Source: Aureococcus anophagefferens (taxonomy: Eukaryota; Sar; Pelagophyceae; Pelagomonadales; Pelagomonadaceae). From it: a stretch of DNA of 64,000 nt. Made by a program: the position numbers and the translations under genes. Positions 32,180-41,469 of this stretch are shown piece after piece. The stretch is from positions 1,181,824 to 1,245,823 of the forward strand of contig NW_008705566.1 in the NCBI RefSeq assembly GCF_000186865.1, in the 5' to 3' direction. The notes below the pieces were generated by a model. It did not search any database. It was not told the origin of the DNA and saw only the letters and a program-made list of their open reading frames with translations. Within the stretch, counting starts at the first letter, position 1. Each line of letters opens with the position of its first letter.

Positions 32180-34582
32180 ATGCTGCGCATCCTTGGGCTC
32201 GTCGTCGCCGTGGAGGCGGCCCTGGAGACCGCGACGCTGCCCACGTCCATCCCACGACCATCGACGAAGAACGTGTCCAACGTCTTCCACAACAACACCA
32301 GCCCGGACAACATCACTATAACCGCCGACAGCAGATCGCTGCTCGTCGACGGCCGCCGCTGGTTTCCAGTCGACGGCGAGCTGCACTTCACGCGCGTGCC
32401 GCGATTCATGTGGCGCGAGGAGCTCCGGCGCGTCAAGGCGGGCGGCTTGGATCAGGTCGCGACGTACGTCTTTTGGAACCACCACGAGGAGCTCCGCGGC
32501 GACTACGATTTCTCCGGGCGGCGCGACCTGCGCGCGTTCCTCGAGACCGCGCGCGACGTCGGCCTGAAGGTGCTCCTGCGGCTCGGGCCGTGGTCCCACG
32601 GCGAGGCGAAGAACGGAGGGCACCCCGACTGGGTCCTGGGCGACGACGAGCCCTGCGGCGCGAAGCTCCGGTCCTTGGACGCGCGATACATGGCCTGCGT
32701 CGATGCGTGGTTCGGGCGCCTCGGCGAGGAGCTGGCGGGTCTCTTCTGGCGGGACGGCGGCCCCGTCTGGGCCGTCCAGCTCGACAACGAGATCGGCGAC
32801 TGGAAGTACCTGCTGGGTCTCCGCGAGATCGCGCTGTCGTACGACATCGCGCCCGCGGCCTTCACGAAGACGGGCTGGCCGAACCCGGACGCCGGGTATC
32901 CGGCACGCTACCCCATGCTTCCCTTCTTCGGGGGCTACGCGGACGCTTCCTGGACGAACGACATGAAGGATCAGATCCAAGCGAACACGTTCGAGTTCCA
33001 CAAAGGCCCGATGATGCTCCTCGGAGAAGGCCCGGATCCGACGTGCCCGGGATGTTATCCGCTCGTGCCGGGCTTCCCGTGGCTGGACGTGGAGATGGGC
33101 GGCGGCATGAACAGCGACTACAACCACAGAACGCACTTGGAACCCCTGGACATGGAAGCCCTCGCGCTCTGCACGGTCGGCGGCGGCTCCAACGGCGTCG
33201 GCTATTACATGTACCACGGCGGCAATAATCCCCACTCCAAGCAACACGACGTCGCGGGCGACGCGCTCCGGGACGCGCCGAACGTGACGCTCCAGGAATC
33301 CGCGTGGTCCGCGGCGGGCACGCAGAATCCCACGACGTCTTCGTCCTACGACTACTTCGCGCCGCTCGGCGAGTTCGGCCAGCCCCGCGGCCACTACCAC
33401 GGGCTCAAGGCCTTGCATTTGATGCTCCGCGCCTGGGGCGACGTGCTCGCGGACGCCGTCCCCGTCCCCGGCGGCGGCGACGACGGGCCGACGGCGCTGC
33501 GCTGGGCCGCGCGCGCGTCGCCCGCGGGCACGTTCCTCTTCGTCAACAACTACCAGCGCGGCGCGACGCTCCCGCCCAAGACCGACGTCCGCTTCGCGCT
33601 CGAGCGGGGCGACGCGACGCTCGCCGTGCCGTCGAACGGCAGCGCGCCGCTGACGATCGACTCGAACGCGTCCTTCGTCTGGCCCGTCGACGTCGCGCTC
33701 CCCGTCGGCCGCATCGCCTGGGCGACGGCGCAGCTGCTGACGCGGACGGACGGCGTCGTCTTCCTCCTCGAGACGCCCGGGTTCTCGGAGGTCGCGCTCG
33801 ATCTGGGGTCGGCGGCGCTCGACACGACCGCGGCGCGGACCGACGAGGGCGGCGTCGCCGTGCTCCGCGGCGTGAAACCGTCGCTCGCGCCCTTCGCCAC
33901 GATCCGCGAAAACGGCCGCGAGGTCTCGCTCGTGCTCCTCGCCGCGGAGTACGTGGACCGCGTCTGGACCGACGAGGACGCTTCGCCGCGCCGCGTCTTC
34001 GTCTCGTCTCCGGGGACGCTGTTCGTGCTCCCCGACGGCGACCGCGTCGACCTCCGCCTCGACGACGGTAACGCGCGAGCCACCCTCCTCGTCTGCCCGC
34101 CGCCGGCCGGGGGGACGGGCGTCTTCGGCGCCGTAGACGAAGTCGACCTGCCCGCGCTCGACCCGCCGCGGCCGGCGGTCCGACTCGTCAAGCCCTTCGC
34201 GACGCCCGTGCGATCCATCCCCGTCGTCAAGTCGAGCGGCAAACCCCGCGAGCCGGACTTGGACGACTGGCTCGGGGCCGCGGAATACGAGATCAACGTG
34301 ACGCTCCCGCCGGGCGCCGAGTGGCGGCTCCGCGTCGACTACGCGGGAGACGCCGCGCGCGTGCTCTTCGAGGACCGTCTGCTGACCGACAACTGGTACA
34401 CGGGCTACGAAACCTCCGGCGGCCTCGAGGTCGGCCTGAGCTTCCTCGCCGACGAGAACCCGGGGCTCCTCGGCGGCACGACGACGCTTCGTCTCCTCGT
34501 CCTGCCGCTCCAGAAGAAGGCCCTCGAAGGCAACGTCTTCCTCGACGAGATCGCGGTCCGCCCGGCGAACGTTAATCTTTAG
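32180..34582 (+). CDS. Secreted GH35 beta-galactosidase-like enzyme
   Basis: About 800 residues with a signal peptide (MLRILGLVVAVEAALETAT). The catalytic TIM barrel follows the GH35 pattern: VDGRRWFPVDGELHFTRVP, RVKAGGLDQVATYVFWNHHE, LRLGPWSHGEAKNGGHPDW and the acid/base AVQLDNEIGDW. LDVEMGGGMNSDY probably carries the nucleophile, followed by GYYMYHGGNNPHS and YDYFAPLGEFGQPRGHY. C-terminal beta-sandwich domains follow (EYEINVTLPPGAEWRLRVDY). Such enzymes release terminal galactose from polysaccharides or glycoproteins. Several N-X-S/T sites fit secretion. The last codon's TAG overlaps the TAA of the convergent Uvr fusion gene. Confidence 0.85.
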   Translation: MLRILGLVVAVEAALETATLPTSIPRPSTKNVSNVFHNNTSPDNITITADSRSLLVDGRRWFPVDGELHFTRVPRFMWREELRRVKAGGLDQVATYVFWNHHEELRGDYDFSGRRDLRAFLETARDVGLKVLLRLGPWSHGEAKNGGHPDWVLGDDEPCGAKLRSLDARYMACVDAWFGRLGEELAGLFWRDGGPVWAVQLDNEIGDWKYLLGLREIALSYDIAPAAFTKTGWPNPDAGYPARYPMLPFFGGYADASWTNDMKDQIQANTFEFHKGPMMLLGEGPDPTCPGCYPLVPGFPWLDVEMGGGMNSDYNHRTHLEPLDMEALALCTVGGGSNGVGYYMYHGGNNPHSKQHDVAGDALRDAPNVTLQESAWSAAGTQNPTTSSSYDYFAPLGEFGQPRGHYHGLKALHLMLRAWGDVLADAVPVPGGGDDGPTALRWAARASPAGTFLFVNNYQRGATLPPKTDVRFALERGDATLAVPSNGSAPLTIDSNASFVWPVDVALPVGRIAWATAQLLTRTDGVVFLLETPGFSEVALDLGSAALDTTAARTDEGGVAVLRGVKPSLAPFATIRENGREVSLVLLAAEYVDRVWTDEDASPRRVFVSSPGTLFVLPDGDRVDLRLDDGNARATLLVCPPPAGGTGVFGAVDEVDLPALDPPRPAVRLVKPFATPVRSIPVVKSSGKPREPDLDDWLGAAEYEINVTLPPGAEWRLRVDYAGDAARVLFEDRLLTDNWYTGYETSGGLEVGLSFLADENPGLLGGTTTLRLLVLPLQKKALEGNVFLDEIAVRPANVNL

Positions 34583-37500
34583 CTATACGTCCCGTTCACG
34601 ATGGCCAGCACCGCGTCGCCGTAGCGCGCGGACTTCTTGGGCCCGATGCCGTGGACCGCGAGGAGCGCGGACTCGTTGGCCGGCCGCAGCTGGACGACGT
34701 TCTCCAACGTCTTCTGGTTGAGCACCATGAAGGGCCGCTTCCCCAGCGACGCCGCGGTGAGCTTCCGCCAGTCGCGGAGCGCGTCGTAGAGCGCGGCGTC
34801 GACGGGATCGGCGAAGTCGGGCGCGTAGGTACCGCCTTCGGGCTTCGACGGGCCGAGGAGGTCGAGGATCTCCGTGTTCTCCGCGGACTTGTTCCGGCCC
34901 GCGCCGACGGGCACGACGTCGTGCCGCGCGTTGTGGTCGAGCTGGACGGCGCGCCGGTAGTTCGTCTCGTCGATGGCCTCGCGCATCGCGTCGCTGACGG
35001 TCCCGTCGTCCGTGTAGAGCAGCACGCGGCCGTCGACGTGGCGCGCGGCGCGGCCGATGGTCTGGATCAGCGACGTCGCCGACCGCAGGAACCCCTGCTT
35101 CTCCGCGCCGACGACGGCGACGAGCGACACCATCGGCAGGTCCAGACCCTCGCGCAGCAGGTTGCATCCCACGAGCGCCTGGAGCTCGCCCGCCTTGAGG
35201 CGCCGGAGCGCGTCCAAACGCTTACCGGAGTCGAGGCCGCTGTGCAAATACGTCGCGGCGACGCCGTTCTCCGTGAGCAGGTCCGCGATGCCCTCGGCCG
35301 ACGCTTTCGTCAGCGTCGTCACGAGCGCGCGGTCGCCCGCGGCCGCGGCCGCGGCGACGCGCGCGAGGAGGTGGTCCTCGAGCCCGCCGGCGGCGGCGGC
35401 GTCGACGACGGACACGACGGGGTCGACGACGCCCGTGGGACGCACGATCAGCGACGTCACGGCGTCGTCGCCGCACATGTCGAAGACGTCCGCGTTCGGC
35501 GTCGCCGTCGCGAAGACGCACTGGGGGACCTTGGCCCAGAACTCCGCGTCCGTCAGCGGCCGGTTGTCCAGCGCGGACTTGAGGCGGAAGCCGTTCTCGA
35601 CGAGCGACGTCTTGCGCGCGCGGTCGCCCGCGTGCATGCCGCGGAGCTGGGGCACGGCGACGTGGGCCTCGTCGACGACGAGGAGCCAGTCGTCGTCCGG
35701 GAAGAAGTCCACCAGCGTCGCGGGCGCCTCGCCCGCCGCGCGCCGCGACACGTGGCGCGCGTAGTTCTCCATACCCGGGCAGAACCCGCGCCGCCGCATG
35801 TCGTCGACGTCGGCTAAGACGCGCTGCTCGAGGCGCCGCGCCTCGCGGAACCGCCCCGCGGCGCGGAACGCCGCGAGGTCGTCGTCGAGTTCCTCGAGCA
35901 CGGCTTGGGCGACGCGCTCGATCTCCTCGGCCGTCGCCACGTAGTGCGACGCGGGGTACAACACGTACTCGTCGACGGACCTCGCGTCGTCGGCTACGAT
36001 CGACACGTCGGACACGAGCAGCGCGTCGTCGCCGGCCTCGACGCTGATTTTGAGCGTCGCGGGCTCCGTGACCAGGCCCACGGACAGCGCCGCGCCGTCG
36101 TCGGTCCACGCGAAGCCGCCGCGGTCCGCGCCGTCCGCGCCGTAGCGGAGCGCGAGCATCGCGGCCTCGAGCTCGCTTCGACCCGTCCAGGACTGGCCCG
36201 GGTGGACGAGCAGCGCCGACGACAGGTACTCCTCGGGCATGCCCAACCCGTAGATGCACGACACCGTCGCGACGACGATCGTGTCGCGCCGCTCGTTTAG
36301 GGATCGCGTCGCGTCGTGGCGGAGCGCGTCGATCCGGTCGTTCGTCGCGGAGCGCTTCTCCGAGTACGTGTCGGACGCGAGCTTGTAGCTCTCGGGCCGG
36401 TAGTAGTCGAAGTGGGACACGAAGAATTTCACGGCGGCGTCGGGGAAGAACTCGCGGAGCTCCGAATAGAGCTGCGCCGCGAGGACCTTGTTCGGCGCTA
36501 AGACGAGAGTCGGTTTGTCCAACTGTTCGATCGCGTGGGCCAAAACGAACGTCTTGCCCGTGCCCGTCGCTCCTTTCAGGACGACGCGGCGCTCGCCGCG
36601 GCCGAGGCGGCCGACGAGCGAATCGATGGCGGCCGGCTGGTCGCCCGCCGGCGGGAAGGGCGCGCGCATCGAGAACGATCGCGCGACCGTGGACGCGATG
36701 GGCGCGCGAGACTTGGCGATCGGCTCGGCGACGGCCGCCGGCCGCGGCGCCGCGATCTCCGACGGCAGCGCCGGCGCGGACCAGGGCCCCAGCGCGGCGT
36801 CGACGTCGCCGGCGACGACGGCGACGAGGAGCGCGTCGAGGTTGCCGCGGTCCGCCGTCGCCAAGCGTAAATCCCTCCTAGACTTCCACCACCGCCGCGC
36901 GCGCGCCTCGTCGCCCGCCGCGTCGAGCGACACCGCGGACCGCCGGCCGTCGGCCGCGAGTGCCTCCACGGCCGAGTCGCGGTTGCCCAGGGAGACGGCG
37001 ACGTCGCGGTTGTCGGCGTCGCCCGATGTCTCCAGCCGCGCCCGGACCGCGGTCGCGACGTCGAAAGGCACGACCGCCGCCAACTCCTCGACGGACGCGG
37101 CGCGGAGCCGCGCGCCGCTGGGAAAGGCGGCGCGGAGCCGCGCCTTGTGCCGCGTCGACGCGCCGTCGAGGAGCGACGCGTGTTCGCCGAAGCGCCGCGA
37201 CCGGCGGTGCGCGAGGAGCGCGGACGCGTGCGCCTCGTCTCGCAGCCGCCGGAGCAGCGTCAGCGTCGGGTCGTGGTCCGCGAGGTTCAACTCGCCGCCG
37301 GCGCCGAAGTGCACGGTCTCCTCGCGCTTCGCGAGCGCCAGCGCCCGCACGTCCGCGCCCGACGCCTCGATGACGCGCCGCGCCGCGTTGAGCTGGCCCC
37401 GGCCGCCGTCGATGAGCACGCAATCCGGCGGCGGCCGGTCAAGCGCGAGCCGCGCCTCCAGGCTCTCGGCGATGGCCGCGCAGTCGTCGATGGCGCCGGA

Positions 37501-37932
37501 GCCCAGGCCGTACCAGCGGTACTCGTCCGTCGCGAGGAGGCCGCGGTCCGCGGCCGCGGACGCGCCGACGGTGTGCGCGCCGCAAAAGTGCGACACGTCG
37601 AGCGCCTCGATGCGCGCCGGCGGCGCGAAGGCGTCGCCCTCCCAGAAGACGCGCAACCCCTCGAGCGCCTCGACGGTCTCGGCCGCGCGCCACGCGCCCT
37701 CGTCGGCCGCCGCGAGCGCCTCCGCGCTCGACGCCGCGGCCGCGGCCGCCGCCGCCGCGGCGTCGGGCAGCGCGAGGCGCGCGGGGCCGCGCGCGTCCAG
37801 CGGCCAGGCCTCGATCTTTTGCGTCTGCGGGAAGCCGCGCGACGCGTACCAGCTCGAGAGCACGAGCGTCTCCACCGTGCGCGCGACGCCGCGCAGCCAG
37901 CGGTGCGAGACGACGCGGTGGGCGACCACCAT
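34579..37932 (-). CDS. Fused UvrC (nuclease half)-UvrB-HRDC excision-repair protein
   Basis: A single uninterrupted 1,117-residue frame. Residues about 100-240 are the UvrC C-terminal RNase H-like endonuclease: IEALDVSHFCGAHTVG (Asp112), CVLIDGGRGQLNAA (Asp175) and RDEAHASALLAHRRSRR (His235). UvrC-type helix-hairpin-helix follows at about 250-300. Residues about 421-1020 are a complete UvrB: Walker A GATGTGKT, the damage-probing hairpin region VSHFDYYRPESYKLASDTY, ATVSCIYGLGMPEEY, GFCPGMENYARH, VVDEAHVAVPQLRGMHAGDR, GCNLLREGLDLP and IQTIGRAARH. The end (about 1045-1117) is an HRDC domain (LRDWRKLTAASLGKRPFMVLNQKTL ... HGIGPKKSARYG) instead of UvrB's UVR motif. The UvrC GIY-YIG 3' nuclease is missing. 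The role is dual-incision-type repair, probably in an organelle; UvrA is not in this window. Confidence 0.9.
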   Translation of the reverse strand: MVVAHRVVSHRWLRGVARTVETLVLSSWYASRGFPQTQKIEAWPLDARGPARLALPDAAAAAAAAAASSAEALAAADEGAWRAAETVEALEGLRVFWEGDAFAPPARIEALDVSHFCGAHTVGASAAADRGLLATDEYRWYGLGSGAIDDCAAIAESLEARLALDRPPPDCVLIDGGRGQLNAARRVIEASGADVRALALAKREETVHFGAGGELNLADHDPTLTLLRRLRDEAHASALLAHRRSRRFGEHASLLDGASTRHKARLRAAFPSGARLRAASVEELAAVVPFDVATAVRARLETSGDADNRDVAVSLGNRDSAVEALAADGRRSAVSLDAAGDEARARRWWKSRRDLRLATADRGNLDALLVAVVAGDVDAALGPWSAPALPSEIAAPRPAAVAEPIAKSRAPIASTVARSFSMRAPFPPAGDQPAAIDSLVGRLGRGERRVVLKGATGTGKTFVLAHAIEQLDKPTLVLAPNKVLAAQLYSELREFFPDAAVKFFVSHFDYYRPESYKLASDTYSEKRSATNDRIDALRHDATRSLNERRDTIVVATVSCIYGLGMPEEYLSSALLVHPGQSWTGRSELEAAMLALRYGADGADRGGFAWTDDGAALSVGLVTEPATLKISVEAGDDALLVSDVSIVADDARSVDEYVLYPASHYVATAEEIERVAQAVLEELDDDLAAFRAAGRFREARRLEQRVLADVDDMRRRGFCPGMENYARHVSRRAAGEAPATLVDFFPDDDWLLVVDEAHVAVPQLRGMHAGDRARKTSLVENGFRLKSALDNRPLTDAEFWAKVPQCVFATATPNADVFDMCGDDAVTSLIVRPTGVVDPVVSVVDAAAAGGLEDHLLARVAAAAAAGDRALVTTLTKASAEGIADLLTENGVAATYLHSGLDSGKRLDALRRLKAGELQALVGCNLLREGLDLPMVSLVAVVGAEKQGFLRSATSLIQTIGRAARHVDGRVLLYTDDGTVSDAMREAIDETNYRRAVQLDHNARHDVVPVGAGRNKSAENTEILDLLGPSKPEGGTYAPDFADPVDAALYDALRDWRKLTAASLGKRPFMVLNQKTLENVVQLRPANESALLAVHGIGPKKSARYGDAVLAIVNGTYS

Positions 37933-37960
37933 TGCAGGACGGGCGCTCTCGCTTGAATGT

Positions 37961-38055
37961 GCACTGCTTACACGCTGCGGCCTGCCGCGCAGCTCACGAA
38001 GACAATGCGCACTGCTACACGCTGCGGACTGCCGCGCAGCTCACGAAGACGGCGC
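37961..38055. repeat. 48-bp tandem duplication upstream of the Uvr fusion gene
   Basis: GCACTGCTTACACGCTGCGG begins at 37961 and a near copy at 38009; each continues CTGCCGCGCAGCTCACGAAG. The two copies lie 29 bp upstream of the start codon of the Uvr fusion gene, in the presumed shared promoter with the small gene at 38159. Confidence 0.85.
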
Positions 38056-38158: not shown

Positions 38159-38449
38159 ATGCGAGGTTGCCTCCTCATCACTGCCGTCGTCGCCGGCGGA
38201 TCCGGCGAGTGGCATCGGACATCGAATGCGACGCTCACCGATTCCTACCGGCGCTGCCCTTTTATGATGGGACGCTACATGGAAACTCCAAGCCACGACA
38301 GCAACTGCCGCGACGACGCGTTCCCAATGTACACCGGCAACGGCGTCTCGCTCGCGCCGCTCGAGATCCTCTGGTCGCCGTCGGCCGTCCTCCCGAAGCT
38401 GCCCTGGAAGCCGGGGAAGCGCAATTCGAAGCCCGAATTCGAAGCCTAG
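38159..38449 (+). CDS. Small protein of unknown function, possibly secreted
   Basis: 96 residues: a short hydrophobic start (MRGCLLITAVVAGGSGEW), two cysteines (RRCPFM, DSNCRDD) and a basic tail (LPKLPWKPGKRNSKPEFEA). Amino-acid composition is balanced rather than Arg/Ala-rich, unlike the shadow frames nearby. Its TAG overlaps the TAG of the convergent FSH1-like gene in a CTAG, the same compact ending as the GH35/Uvr pair, which supports it being real. No family recognised. Confidence 0.45.
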   Translation: MRGCLLITAVVAGGSGEWHRTSNATLTDSYRRCPFMMGRYMETPSHDSNCRDDAFPMYTGNGVSLAPLEILWSPSAVLPKLPWKPGKRNSKPEFEA

Positions 38450-39300
38450 TTAAGCAACGCGACGCCACCGGCCTCGTCGGCGGTCGCGTCGTCCGGCCGG
38501 AACACGTTCGGCGGAATCGCCAGCTGGGGCGTCGTCAGCCGCGCGATGTCCGGGTATTCGGCGGGCATGGTGACGCGGTCGACGAAGTCGCAGATCCTCC
38601 GCGCGAGCCGCACGGCGTCCGCGTGGTCCGCGGGGAAGGGCCGGTGGTCCTCGTCGTGCGTCGCGAGCTCCAAGTTCGCCTCGCTGAAGAGCGCGCGGAA
38701 GCCGTCGAAGGACGGCCCGACGCGCTCGTCGTTGGTCCCGATCGTCGCGAGGACCGGCGGCGACGCGATGGGCGCCGCGAAGAGCTCGCCGCGGTCGCGC
38801 AGCGCCGACGCCCAGCCGAAGTCGCCGCCGCCCATGAGCACGGCCCACCGCACCGGCGGGTCGACGCCGCGCTTCGCGAAGTCGGCGAGCAGCATGGCCG
38901 CCAGGTTCGCGCCCTGGCTGAAGCCGACGATGCCCTCGTAGCGCGGCGCCTCGTCCGCGAGGTAGAGGTCGCGGAAGGCGGCGAGGGACGCCGGTAGCCT
39001 CACGTAGCTGCCCCGGTCCGGCGCCGGCGGATGCGGATAGAGGTCCTTGCTCGCGTAGGACGACTTCGCCGACGTCGTCTTGTTCACGTAGCTGTAGAAC
39101 TTGCCGGGGTAGAGCGCTTCGAGCATGGGGTCGCCGACGCACTCGTACATGCCGTCGATGCACTCGAAGTCGAGCGCCAGCCCTTTGCCGATGGCCGACG
39201 CGAAGAACGGGCGCAGCTGCATGCGCAGGATCTCCGCGCGCGAGCCCCCGCCGTGGAGGCAGAGCACTCTGCGCGTCGGACCGGCGTCGAAGAGGGCCAT
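38446..39300 (-). CDS. FSH1-type serine hydrolase (alpha/beta hydrolase)
   Basis: About 284 residues. The N-terminal strand RRVLCLHGGGSRAEILRMQL leads into FASAIGKGLALDFECIDG, then the nucleophile elbow GIVGFSQGANLAAMLL with its Ser. The late strand PVLATIGTNDERVGP probably provides the Asp, and DEDHRPFP the His. This is the order of the FSH1/ovarian-tumour-suppressor OVCA2 family of small serine hydrolases. The start at 39300 is the first ATG before the strand (MALFDAGPTRRVL). The natural substrate is unknown. Confidence 0.82.
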   Translation of the reverse strand: MALFDAGPTRRVLCLHGGGSRAEILRMQLRPFFASAIGKGLALDFECIDGMYECVGDPMLEALYPGKFYSYVNKTTSAKSSYASKDLYPHPPAPDRGSYVRLPASLAAFRDLYLADEAPRYEGIVGFSQGANLAAMLLADFAKRGVDPPVRWAVLMGGGDFGWASALRDRGELFAAPIASPPVLATIGTNDERVGPSFDGFRALFSEANLELATHDEDHRPFPADHADAVRLARRICDFVDRVTMPAEYPDIARLTTPQLAIPPNVFRPDDATADEAGGVALLN

Positions 39301-39511
39301 GGCCGAGCGCTCCTCGACGTCGCCGGGGATCGGCACCTGCGCCCCGAGGACCACTTCGTGGACGTCGCGCACTTCGACGGCGACGGCTCCGCGCGGGTCG
39401 CCGTGCGCGTGCGAGGACGAGCGCGCGCGCTGCGCGGGCTGCCCAGATGCTCCGGGACGATTGGTGGCGTTCATCCTCACTTCAATTGGAATTACCGCCA
39501 AAAGAGGTGAC

Positions 39512-41469
39512 ATGGCCGCATCCAAACAGGGCATGCCCGCAGAAAACGCGTTTGCAAAAGCTGAGGGCGGCATGGATCCAGCCATGACTGAGGATGCCTG
39601 GTCTTGGACCGACGGCCGCGAATGCACTGTCTCCAGCACCGCGGAGCTGCGCGCCGCGCTCGCGCACGCGGCGCGCGACCGGACGACCACCATCCGCCTC
39701 GAGGCCGGGGCCTACGAGCTCGACGCCGTGCTGGAGGTCGAGCGCGGCGCGCGGGTCTGCCTGGAGGGGCCCGAGGAATTGCCGCCCGCCCCGGAGACGG
39801 CGGACCACCGCCTCGCCGTCGGCGCCGTCGCCTGCGGCCTCGCGGGCTGGCGCGCGGCGCCGCGCGCCGTCGCCGTCGCGGCGTCGTGCGCCGTCGCCGC
39901 GGAGCTCGCGCGGTGGTGGCGGCGCCGCGGCGCCGCGGCGCCGCGGCGGTCGCCGGCGCCGGCGGCGCGGCTCGAGGACTCGTGGAGCGGCGCGCTCCGC
40001 GTCGCCGGCGGCGGCACGCGCGTGTCCCTGCGCCGGGTCGAGGTCCGCGGCTGCGGCGGCGACGCCGTCACCGTCGACGGCGCCGCGCTGCGCGCGGCGC
40101 GCTGCGTCATCTCCTGCCAGCGGGGCCACGGCGTCGTCGTCGCCGGCGGCGGGTCGCTGGCGCTCGCGGACTGCGTCGTGCGCAACTGCGCGTCGTCGGG
40201 CGCAGGGCAGGAAAAGGGTGATTCAACGTCGCTTCAACGTGAGTGTTCCGCGCGCGCGCGTTCCGGAAAAATCATCCACGCTTCGAGACCGTTCCGAGAG
40301 ATGATCGCTCGTCCAAAAATCAGCCGAAACGAGCGGAAATCGACCGAGAAAGGAGCCTTTGAAGTTGGGAATTTCGCACCCTTTTCCTGCCCAGGTCGGG
40401 CGTCGTCGTCACGTCGGGAACCGCCGCCGCGCGCGAGACGCGCTTCGCGCGCTGCCGGCGCTTCGGCTTCGAGGCCCAGGGCGGCGGCCGCGTGCGCGTG
40501 GAGGACTGCGCCTTTGCCGACGGCGGCGTCTGCGTGAGCGACCGCGAGGGCTGGGCGGCGGGCGCGGACGTCCGCGTCGACCGGTGCGTCGTCGAGGGCC
40601 AGGCCGCGTGCCTGCCCGGCATCTCGGTCATCGGCGACCGCGTGCCCGACGTCGCCGTGCGCGACACGACGGTGCGCGGCGTCAACGGCACGGGCGTCTA
40701 CTGCCTCGGCGGCCGCGTGTCGCTCGAAAACTGCGACGTCCGCGCCGCGCTCATGGCCGGCGTCGAGGCGCTCCGGTCCTCGAGGGTCGAGATCCGCGCG
40801 TCGCGGGTCTGCCGGAACCGGGGCGGCGGCGTCGTCGCCCACGCGGGCGCGACCTGCGCCGCCTTTGGCACGACCATCGCGGAGAACCGCGGCGGCGGCA
40901 ACGTCGGCTGCTTCGACGCCGCGACGTGCCGGCTCGAGGACTGCGACGTCGCCGGCGCCGTCGGCGCCATGAGCGTGCACTGCTCGCGCGCGACCATGAC
41001 GCTGAAGAACACGCGCGTGGGCGCGCGCGACCCCGGCGGCCCCGGCGTCGTCGTCTCCGGCGCCGACAGCCGGACGAACCGCGCGAAGATGAAGCTCGTC
41101 AAGGCGCCGCCGTCGCGGCTCTACGTCTCCGGCGGCGTCTTGAACAGCCTCATGGTCGCCATGCACCCGCGGCAGGACCCCGGCGACGCGCCCTGGGCCG
41201 CGCTCTTCGCGGAGCGGACGCGGCTCCTCGCGCCGCTGGCGCTCCGCGCGCCGACGGCGGGCTCGCTCGACGGCGTCGCGTGCGGCGCGGACGAGGTCGC
41301 GCCGGGCCTGGGCCTCGGCGTCGCCGACGACGCGTCGATCGGCTTCTGGCGGGGCGCCACGCGCCTCCCCTGGTCCCGGGAGCGGCTCCTCCACGTCCTC
41401 GCGCGCGACTCCGCGCTGTCGCGACTGCATCCGCAGGTGCTCCGGTCCATCGCCGACTTCGCGAGCTAG
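39512..41469 (+). CDS. Right-handed parallel beta-helix protein, introner-interrupted
   Basis: Exon 1 is 39512-40194 and exon 2 is 40395-41469, joined across an introner (40195-40394) so that ..VRNCAS runs into SGVVVTSG. From about residue 45 the chain is a succession of 20-25-residue coils with the PbH1 pattern, for example GTRVSLRRVEVRGCGGDAV, GSLALADCVVRNCAS, GGRVRVEDCAFADGG, GRVSLENCDVRAALMAG and ATMTLKNTRVGAR. About a dozen coils can be counted, resembling pectate-lyase-like and F-box/SHCBP1-type beta-helices. The conserved Cys at coil turns may form an internal ladder. No catalytic motif or signal peptide is evident. The C-terminal part (PWSRERLLHVLARDSAL) is helical. The role is unknown. 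Confidence 0.72.
40195..40394 (+). mobile_element. Introner, family B copy 2 (functions as a GT-AG intron)
   Basis: The element is 40203-40394 (192 bp) with terminal repeats CAGGGCAGGAAAAGGGTG / CACCCTTTTCCTGCCCAG. The perfect 8-bp duplication GTCGGGCG lies at 40195-40202 and 40395-40402. The duplication supplies the GT donor and the element the CAG acceptor. It is the same length as the copy at 16618 and differs at few positions. Both ends carry the same AGCAAAA to AGGAAAA change, showing compensatory or gene-conversion-like matching of the repeats. Confidence 0.95.

What the first reader, a model, noticed from the sequence alone, without database searches (positions are those of the whole stretch)
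34579..37932. UvrC nuclease half, complete UvrB and HRDC fused in one eukaryotic nuclear gene
Seen: one uninterrupted 1,117-codon frame holds the UvrC RNase H-like nuclease plus HhH, then all UvrB helicase motifs, then HRDC. Known: bacterial UvrB and UvrC are separate; UvrC joins the complex through UVR motifs and makes the 3' cut with GIY-YIG and the 5' cut with the RNase H-like domain. Inference: fusion makes the recruiting contact permanent. UvrB's C-terminal UVR is gone, replaced by HRDC, and the GIY-YIG half is gone, so the protein may make only one incision or need a separate 3' nuclease. I know of no described UvrC-UvrB-HRDC fusion in algae.
Basis: partly seen in the sequence, partly recalled or inferred. 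Interest (0 to 1): 0.92.

Follow-up and report, generated by a model that had tools for sequence, protein, structure and literature searches.

The report
Algal UvrC-UvrB repair nuclease fusion
An alga carries, in its nucleus, a single protein that joins half of a bacterial DNA-cutting repair enzyme to its partner motor; relatives occur in several other algal groups, and it may be a stripped-down DNA repair machine for organelles that were thought to lack one.

Summary
Minus strand 37932-34579 is one uninterrupted 1,117-codon gene: UvrC RNase H-like nuclease, an eroded (HhH)2 fold, a new linker, UvrB domains 1-3, and a RecQ-type HRDC. GIY-YIG and UVR are absent. It is a nuclear gene with one full-length copy, from Aureococcus anophagefferens or a very close relative.

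It is not unique. The RNase H-UvrB order occurs in two haptophytes (with HRDC), two chlorarachniophytes (no HRDC hit) and the green alga Cymbomonas (model cut short). The UvrB halves form one clade (100/99) beside cyanobacteria. All 17 fused proteins collected carry K/R before the Walker A loop (L in 91 of 92 bacteria) and 16 share an xWW linker motif, so the fusion probably arose once.

The own genome shows no UvrA, no second UvrC, and one GIY-YIG protein that looks like SLX1. The nuclease DDH residues and UvrB motor motifs are kept. UvrB domain 2, a UvrA contact, is significantly eroded in four of seven sequences tested.

Best reading: a UvrA-independent, one-polypeptide nuclease that finds lesions with UvrB and makes the 5' incision on opened or pre-nicked DNA, probably in an organelle. 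Location and activity are untested. The paper listings I saw describe no such protein.

The parts
34579..37932 (-). whole coding sequence, 1,117 aa, UvrC(RNase H)-UvrB-HRDC fusion
37681..37932 (-). N-terminal segment, residues 1-84; helix 10-30 conserved with haptophyte-type members; no GIY-YIG hit; no cysteine before residue 117; no signal peptide evident
37207..37680 (-). UvrC RNase H-like nuclease, residues 85-242; D112, D175, H235 present
37027..37206 (-). (HhH)2-like fold, residues 243-302, hairpin motifs eroded
   Evidence: no Pfam HHH hit here
36682..37026 (-). family linker, residues 303-417, with RWW motif (347-349); low-confidence tail 387-411
34885..36681 (-). UvrB domains 1a, 1b, 2, 3, residues 418-1016, helicase motifs intact
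35953..36219 (-). UvrB domain 2 (a UvrA contact in bacteria), about residues 572-660; keeps 8 of 22 highly conserved bacterial residues
   Evidence: domain limits recalled
34591..34803 (-). RecQ-type HRDC domain, residues 1044-1114, where UvrB has its UVR domain

Best explanation
Shown: a nuclear gene with one full-length copy encodes one polypeptide with the UvrC 5'-incision nuclease, a linker, a UvrB motor and HRDC. It belongs to an algal family whose sampled members form one clade in trees of either half, with the UvrB half placed beside cyanobacteria. UvrA and UvrC-type GIY-YIG were not detected in this genome. Inferred: the protein works as a UvrA-independent 'UvrBC in cis' enzyme. The UvrB part binds and translocates on opened or single-stranded DNA with ATP and stalls at a bulky lesion. 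HRDC and the residual (HhH)2 hold single-stranded DNA. The tethered RNase H domain then cuts the damaged strand on the 5' side. The 3' cut is supplied by another enzyme or is not needed because the substrate is already nicked, gapped or bubbled. The likely place of action is an organelle, most likely the plastid.
For: Architecture and fold. Nuclease residues in 17 fused proteins (near copies included): first Asp 16 of 17 (P0132 starts after it), second Asp and RDEAH His 17 of 17. UvrB Walker A 17 of 17; VDE[AS]H and IGRAAR in 8 of 17, missing in the eight P0200-type fragments and in the truncated P0206; hairpin Tyr96 8 of 8. No UvrA: best TIGR00630 match 37 bits against a cut-off of 729.8; of 14 controls 12 pass the cut-off. 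PF17755 no match, 13 of 14 controls ring. UvrC TIGR00194: this gene only, 12 of 14 controls ring. GIY-YIG: one locus, SLX1-like by eye, 12 of 14 controls ring. UvrB tree: fused rows 100/99, fused+cyano against the rest 99/97. Precedent: bacterial UvrBC binds lesions without UvrA and can incise DNA that is pre-nicked 3' or bubbled (PMC5814901 discussion). UVR contact is needed for the 3' incision, (HhH)2 for the 5' incision (PMC7835731 passages). Nuclear NER-type genes are present separately. The Diacronema homologue starts with a hydrophobic, signal-like segment.
Against: No activity, expression or localisation data. The window protein has no recognisable bipartite plastid signal at its ATG; an upstream exon was not excluded. 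(HhH)2, needed for the 5' incision in bacteria, is eroded here. Erosion of UvrB domain 2 is significant in 4 of 7 sequences (P0001, P0130, P0131, P0132; not P0005, P0006, P0206), so loss of UvrA docking is not uniform, and UvrA was searched in one assembly of unknown completeness. Hairpin positions 92/93 are H/F or N/F in the HRDC members, which might relax damage discrimination (recalled role). PMC5814901 says there is no evidence that UvrBC alone excises damage; PMC7835731 words the same finding more strongly. Long branches weaken the trees; the UvrC half's adjacency to cyanobacteria is weak (84/78). Mfd could not be searched.
Confidence: 0.5

Rival explanations
1. It is not an excision-repair enzyme but a structure-specific helicase-nuclease for organelle (or nuclear) recombination and fork processing, using HRDC as in RecQ; the UvrB/UvrC parts were repurposed.
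For: HRDC of RecQ type; no UvrA, UvrC-type GIY-YIG or UVR found; hairpin positions 92/93 changed in the HRDC members.
Against: No HRDC hit in P0130, P0131 and P0132, so it may not belong to the ancestral core; UvrB hairpin Tyr96 kept in 8 of 8, Tyr101 and Tyr108 in 7 of 8 each; nuclease residues kept.
Confidence: 0.25
2. It carries out ordinary dual-incision NER with partners that the searches missed (a divergent UvrA and a separate 3' nuclease such as the SLX1-like GIY-YIG protein).
For: UvrB domain 2 still predicted to fold and largely kept in Diacronema and Cymbomonas (15 of 22 each); one GIY-YIG protein exists.
Against: UvrA scores above its cut-off in 12 of 14 controls, and only short matches at general ABC level appear here. 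The GIY-YIG protein looks like SLX1. No UVR domain for docking.
Confidence: 0.1
3. A decaying relic of transferred bacterial genes without nuclease function.
For: Erosion of domain 2 and of the HhH hairpins; long branches.
Against: Nuclease residues and Walker A kept in pelagophyte, haptophyte, chlorarachniophyte and green-algal members (the green-algal model lacks the later UvrB motifs); full-length open frame; GC3 0.947-0.988 in every segment.
Confidence: 0.06
4. Assembly or contamination artefact joining two bacterial genes.
For: None found.
Against: Same fusion in separate records of Aureococcus, Prymnesium, Diacronema, Amorphochlora and an MMETSP-labelled chlorarachniophyte; shared linker motif in 16 of 17; eukaryotic neighbours; uniform GC3.
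Confidence: 0.01

Closest known systems
Bacterial UvrB (NF003673/TIGR00631; 1t5l, 3uwx, 6o8e)
   Same: Domains 1a, 1b, 2, 3; Walker A, DE(A/S)H, motifs V-VI; beta-hairpin with Tyr96
   Different: No UVR domain 4; domain 2 eroded in part of the family; L38 replaced by K/R; fused to a nuclease; below the equivalog cut-off (670 of 743 bits)
C-terminal half of bacterial UvrC (PF08459; 2nrt, 8b0q)
   Same: RNase H-like fold with the DDH residues and a following (HhH)2 fold
   Different: No GIY-YIG or UVR, no cysteine before residue 117 in P0001 (so no four-Cys region); HhH hairpin motifs eroded; continues into UvrB
Bacterial UvrBC complex acting without UvrA (PMC5814901, abstract and discussion)
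   Same: The same two proteins without UvrA
   Different: There a non-covalent complex through UVR regions with GIY-YIG present; here covalent, GIY-YIG absent
Cho / UvrC-like GIY-YIG proteins (PMC1564403, passages)
   Same: UvrC relatives that carry one of the two incision activities
   Different: Cho keeps the GIY-YIG half; this family keeps the RNase H half
RecQ helicases with HRDC
   Same: C-terminal HRDC (2ma1)
   Different: The motor is UvrB, not RecQ

Membership tests
UvrB | UvrB helicase core with Walker A/B and motif VI | tested here: met
UvrB | beta-hairpin with aromatic residues | tested here: met
   P0001 keeps Tyr95, 96, 101, 108; positions 92/93 are H/F
UvrB | UvrA-interaction domain 2 (PF17757) | tested here: not met
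   no Pfam hit, 8 of 22 conserved residues; the fold is still predicted, from an alignment that held bacterial UvrB
UvrB | C-terminal UVR domain (PF02151) | tested here: not met
   2 of 11 conserved residues
UvrC | RNase H-like domain with DDH residues | tested here: met
   residue names D367/D429/H488 recalled
UvrC | N-terminal GIY-YIG nuclease | tested here: not met
   (this protein); genome-wide only an SLX1-like hit
UvrC | C-terminal (HhH)2 | tested here: inconclusive
UvrABC excinuclease system | UvrA encoded in the same genome | tested here: not met
   one assembly of unknown completeness
UvrABC excinuclease system | dual incision of damaged duplex DNA | not testable with these tools
   needs biochemistry
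RecQ helicase | RecQ motor | tested here: not met
   motor scores as UvrB (670 bits); TIGR01389 recQ 60 bits, best stretch 1037-1113, the HRDC

The most novel reading that the evidence does not exclude
Several algal lineages keep an organellar, bacterial-derived excision system reduced to one nuclear-encoded polypeptide: a UvrA-free, GIY-YIG-free UvrC-UvrB fusion that senses lesions and makes the 5' cut by itself. It would derive from the cyanobacterial endosymbiont, and its HRDC form would be shared by pelagophytes and haptophytes through plastid-related gene transfer.
Probability: 0.35. Interest if true: 0.9.

Novelty: new variant of a known kind. Interest (0 to 1): 0.78.

Why it matters
A review states that flowering plants encode no UvrA, UvrB or UvrC homologues and that NER seems absent from organelles (PMC6981420, passages). 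[quoted passage not shown] A conserved algal UvrC-UvrB fusion without detectable UvrA gives a concrete, testable candidate. It may be a natural form of the UvrA-independent UvrBC activity seen in E. coli (PMC5814901, abstract and discussion). The fusion is also a shared character for tracing gene flow between pelagophytes and haptophytes, for which transfer of plastid-protein genes has been argued (PMC5462543, passages).

Tried and rejected
GIY-YIG half in an upstream exon: the upstream same-strand frame is an FSH1 hydrolase (38446-39693), and the one GIY-YIG hit in the genome looks like SLX1. Viral origin: of two scans of viral contigs, one search found no relative, and one search gave three loci (L005-L007) matching query residues 419-1058 only, with UvrB open frames of 660-677 codons; UvrC elsewhere on those contigs was not looked for. 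Bacterial origin of the fusion itself: among the best 120 of 231 hits the rows carrying both domains are named eukaryotes or unnamed metagenome proteins; 111 hits were not shown, and searches scored only the candidates sharing most words, so a rare bacterial fusion is not excluded. HRDC replacing (HhH)2 by function: suggestive only. HRDC members have no HHH hit in the UvrC half while P0130 and P0132 do, but P0131 has neither and P0206 is cut short. C-terminal stretches of the chlorarachniophyte proteins: no Pfam match above a cut-off. Linker fold (residues 303-415): model confidence mostly under 75, and the structure rows mostly span only the (HhH)2 part, so its fold stays unknown. Mfd: not completed.

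Rows left out. UvrB counts and trees start from 80 genome-contig loci less L055, L076, L078 (length filter) plus 15 proteins = 92 bacteria; these are top hits, not a random sample. One search used 74 rows (6 fused, 17 of 41 cyanobacterial, 36 other loci, 15 proteins); searches used 44 of them (6 fused, 13 cyanobacterial, 25 other). P0002-P0004 (near copies), P0206 (truncated) and the P0200-type fragments are not in the UvrB trees. The UvrC tree (46 rows: 8 fused, 12 cyanobacterial, 26 other) omits P0132 (N-terminus missing), P0002 and P0003 (near copies), P0201, P0202, P0204, P0205, P0207, P0208 (close relatives of rows kept) and L114/L115 (split gene). A first pass of the domain counts used numbering off by 12 and was replaced.
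Full report

GENOMIC SETTING. The window is C6:1181824-1245823 of a 49.05 Mb, 86-contig genome, with one full-length match to this protein. Of 10 other frames scanned, 7 have Pfam hits: beta-adaptin, FSH1 hydrolase, FHA/PH, NLI phosphatase, KTI12, enoyl-CoA hydratase, GH35. GC3 is 0.947-0.988 in the five protein segments, as expected of a long-resident gene. The nearest named protein is Aureococcus anophagefferens (Pelagophyceae) P0003: at least 48 of 50 residues identical in 16 of 23 bins; the poorer bins look like gene-model differences (inference).

ACTIVE SITES. In 17 fused proteins (near copies included) the first Asp of the nuclease is present in 16 (P0132 starts after it), and the second Asp and the His of RDEAH in 17. 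Aligned to Thermotoga UvrC, D112, D175 and H235 fall, with one constant offset, on D367, D429 and H488. These numbers are recalled; the paper is not held, and I saw only its title, which speaks of an Argonaute-like triad, in a reference list. UvrB Walker A is kept in 17 of 17; VDE[AS]H and IGRAAR are found in 8 of 17. The other 9 are the eight P0200-type fragments, which end before these motifs, and the truncated P0206.

WHAT CHANGED IN UVRB. Of residues conserved in at least 90% of 92 bacterial UvrBs, P0001 keeps 82/94 in domain 1a, 29/41 in 1b, 74/104 in 3, but 8/22 in domain 2 and 2/11 in domain 4. The lowest bacterium keeps 12/22 in domain 2. Domain 2 against the other core domains: p 0.00011 for P0001, 0.00016 P0130, 0.0003 P0131, 0.0015 P0132, but 0.078 P0005, 0.28 P0006 and 1.0 P0206. 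UvrB domains 2 and 1b are the UvrA contacts in bacteria (PMC7616783, one passage). Position 38, before the Walker A loop, is L in 91 of 92 bacteria and K/R in 8 of 8 fused rows aligned and 17 of 17 by motif. Hairpin positions 92 and 93 are each Y in 91 of 92 bacteria; they are H/F or N/F in the HRDC-bearing members and Y/Y or F/Y in the others. Domain limits and the roles of these tyrosines are recalled.

THE FAMILY. Protein searches brought the same RNase H-UvrB order in Aureococcus (P0003; P0004 is a UvrB-HRDC-only model), Prymnesium parvum (P0005), Diacronema lutheri (P0006, Haptophyta), two chlorarachniophytes (P0130, label 'Norri...' with taxid 91329; P0131 Amorphochlora), the green alga Cymbomonas (P0206; model truncated within UvrB) and unnamed metagenome proteins (P0002, P0132, P0200-P0205, P0207, P0208). 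Of 12 scanned against Pfam (P0001-P0006, P0130-P0132, P0200, P0206, P0208), none has a GIY-YIG, UVR or UvrB_inter hit, though P0200, P0206 and P0208 are too short to show UVR and P0004 lacks the UvrC half. HRDC is in P0001-P0006. A Pfam HHH hit in the UvrC half is in P0130, P0132 and P0206, not in P0001-P0003, P0005, P0006, P0131, P0200 or P0208. An xWW motif in the linker is in 16 of 17: RWW in P0001-P0003, P0005, P0006, P0130; KWW in eight metagenome proteins; QWW in P0206; SWW in P0131; none in P0132.

ORIGIN. UvrB tree, 44 rows, C20 mixture, domain 2 left out: fused rows one clade 100/99; fused plus cyanobacteria against all others 99/97. Holding the fused rows with Chloroflexota, Bacilli or Actinobacteria is rejected at p 0.021, 0.017 and 0.030. 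The tree is unrooted, fused branches are long and cyanobacterial sampling is partial; some rows fail the composition test. UvrC nuclease tree, 46 rows: fused rows one clade 100/98, adjacency to cyanobacteria weak, 84/78. A single fusion of a cyanobacterial-type (plastid ancestor) pair is the simplest reading. That a pelagophyte and haptophytes share the HRDC form fits the pelagophyte/dictyochophyte-to-haptophyte transfer of plastid-protein genes argued in PMC5462543 (passages); the same paper reports that plastid-encoded genes do not show that link. The tree here joins P0001 with P0005 beside P0006 (95/84), too thin to give a direction.

PARTNERS. Own-genome searches: UvrA TIGR00630 best 37 bits against a 729.8 cut-off, ten short matches at general ABC ATPase level; all 14 controls ring, 12 over the cut-off. 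UvrA_DNA-bind PF17755 no match, 13 of 14 controls ring. UvrC TIGR00194 only this gene, 12 of 14 controls. GIY-YIG one locus, a 352-aa frame with a Cys-rich RING-like stretch, SLX1-like by eye. XPB-type and four ERCC4-type loci are present, so nuclear NER is probably served separately. Mfd could not be searched.

HOW IT PROBABLY WORKS. In bacteria the UVR contact is needed for the 3' cut and for an extra damage-independent 5' cut, and (HhH)2 for single-strand binding and the 5' cut (PMC7835731, passages). UvrBC binds lesions without UvrA and was reported to incise only DNA already nicked 3' or opened as a bubble; excision by UvrBC alone is not shown (PMC5814901 abstract and discussion). The fusion keeps the 5'-incision set and lacks the 3' set and the UVR tether, in a genome without detectable UvrA. 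So the most likely function is lesion-checked 5' incision on opened or pre-nicked DNA, with HRDC adding single-strand grip (inference); the eroded (HhH)2 speaks against it unless HRDC makes up for it. Organelle location is inferred from the cyanobacterial affinity, the bacterial type of the machine, the presence of nuclear NER genes and the signal-like start of P0006. The window protein shows no such signal, so location is the weakest step.

NOVELTY. Ten paper searches in the held open-access library, with terms for UvrB/UvrC/HRDC fusion, haptophyte, prasinophyte, plastid and algal repair, listed no title or abstract start describing this fusion; several listings were capped (for example 10 of 322), and I did not open most papers. 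The RNase H superfamily census (PMC3985635, passages) gives, in what I saw, only the standard UvrC architecture. Public records label the homologues 'Type III restriction enzyme', 'DNA helicase', 'hypothetical protein' or 'Excinuclease ABC subunit ...'. Most subscription papers and all preprints were outside the library.

Noticed in passing
window 32180-34582 (+) and 34579-37932 (-): The GH35-type frame and the fusion gene converge and their frames overlap by 4 bases, a sign of a compact genome.
   Followed up: no
window 37956-38050: Just upstream of the fusion's ATG lies a tandem repeat of period 47, two copies, 93% matches; it may hold a splice site or an upstream exon.
   Followed up: partly
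L005, L006, L007: Viral contigs encode bacterial-type UvrB (40-42% identity to the UvrB half, open frames 660-677 codons).
   Followed up: partly
P0130 and P0131 C-termini: The chlorarachniophyte fusion proteins share their own C-terminal conserved stretch (F-K-[ND]-R-E ... R-R-A-x-[RK]-H-P-H) with no Pfam family above its cut-off.
   Followed up: partly
P0200-P0205: Six haptophyte-like metagenome proteins all stop at the same residue, after VATVSCI, as if at a conserved exon end.
   Followed up: no
P0189: An Anaerolinea UvrB of 1,318 aa carries extra precomputed Pfam domains (PF14528, PF14890) that I recall as homing-endonuclease/intein domains.
   Followed up: no
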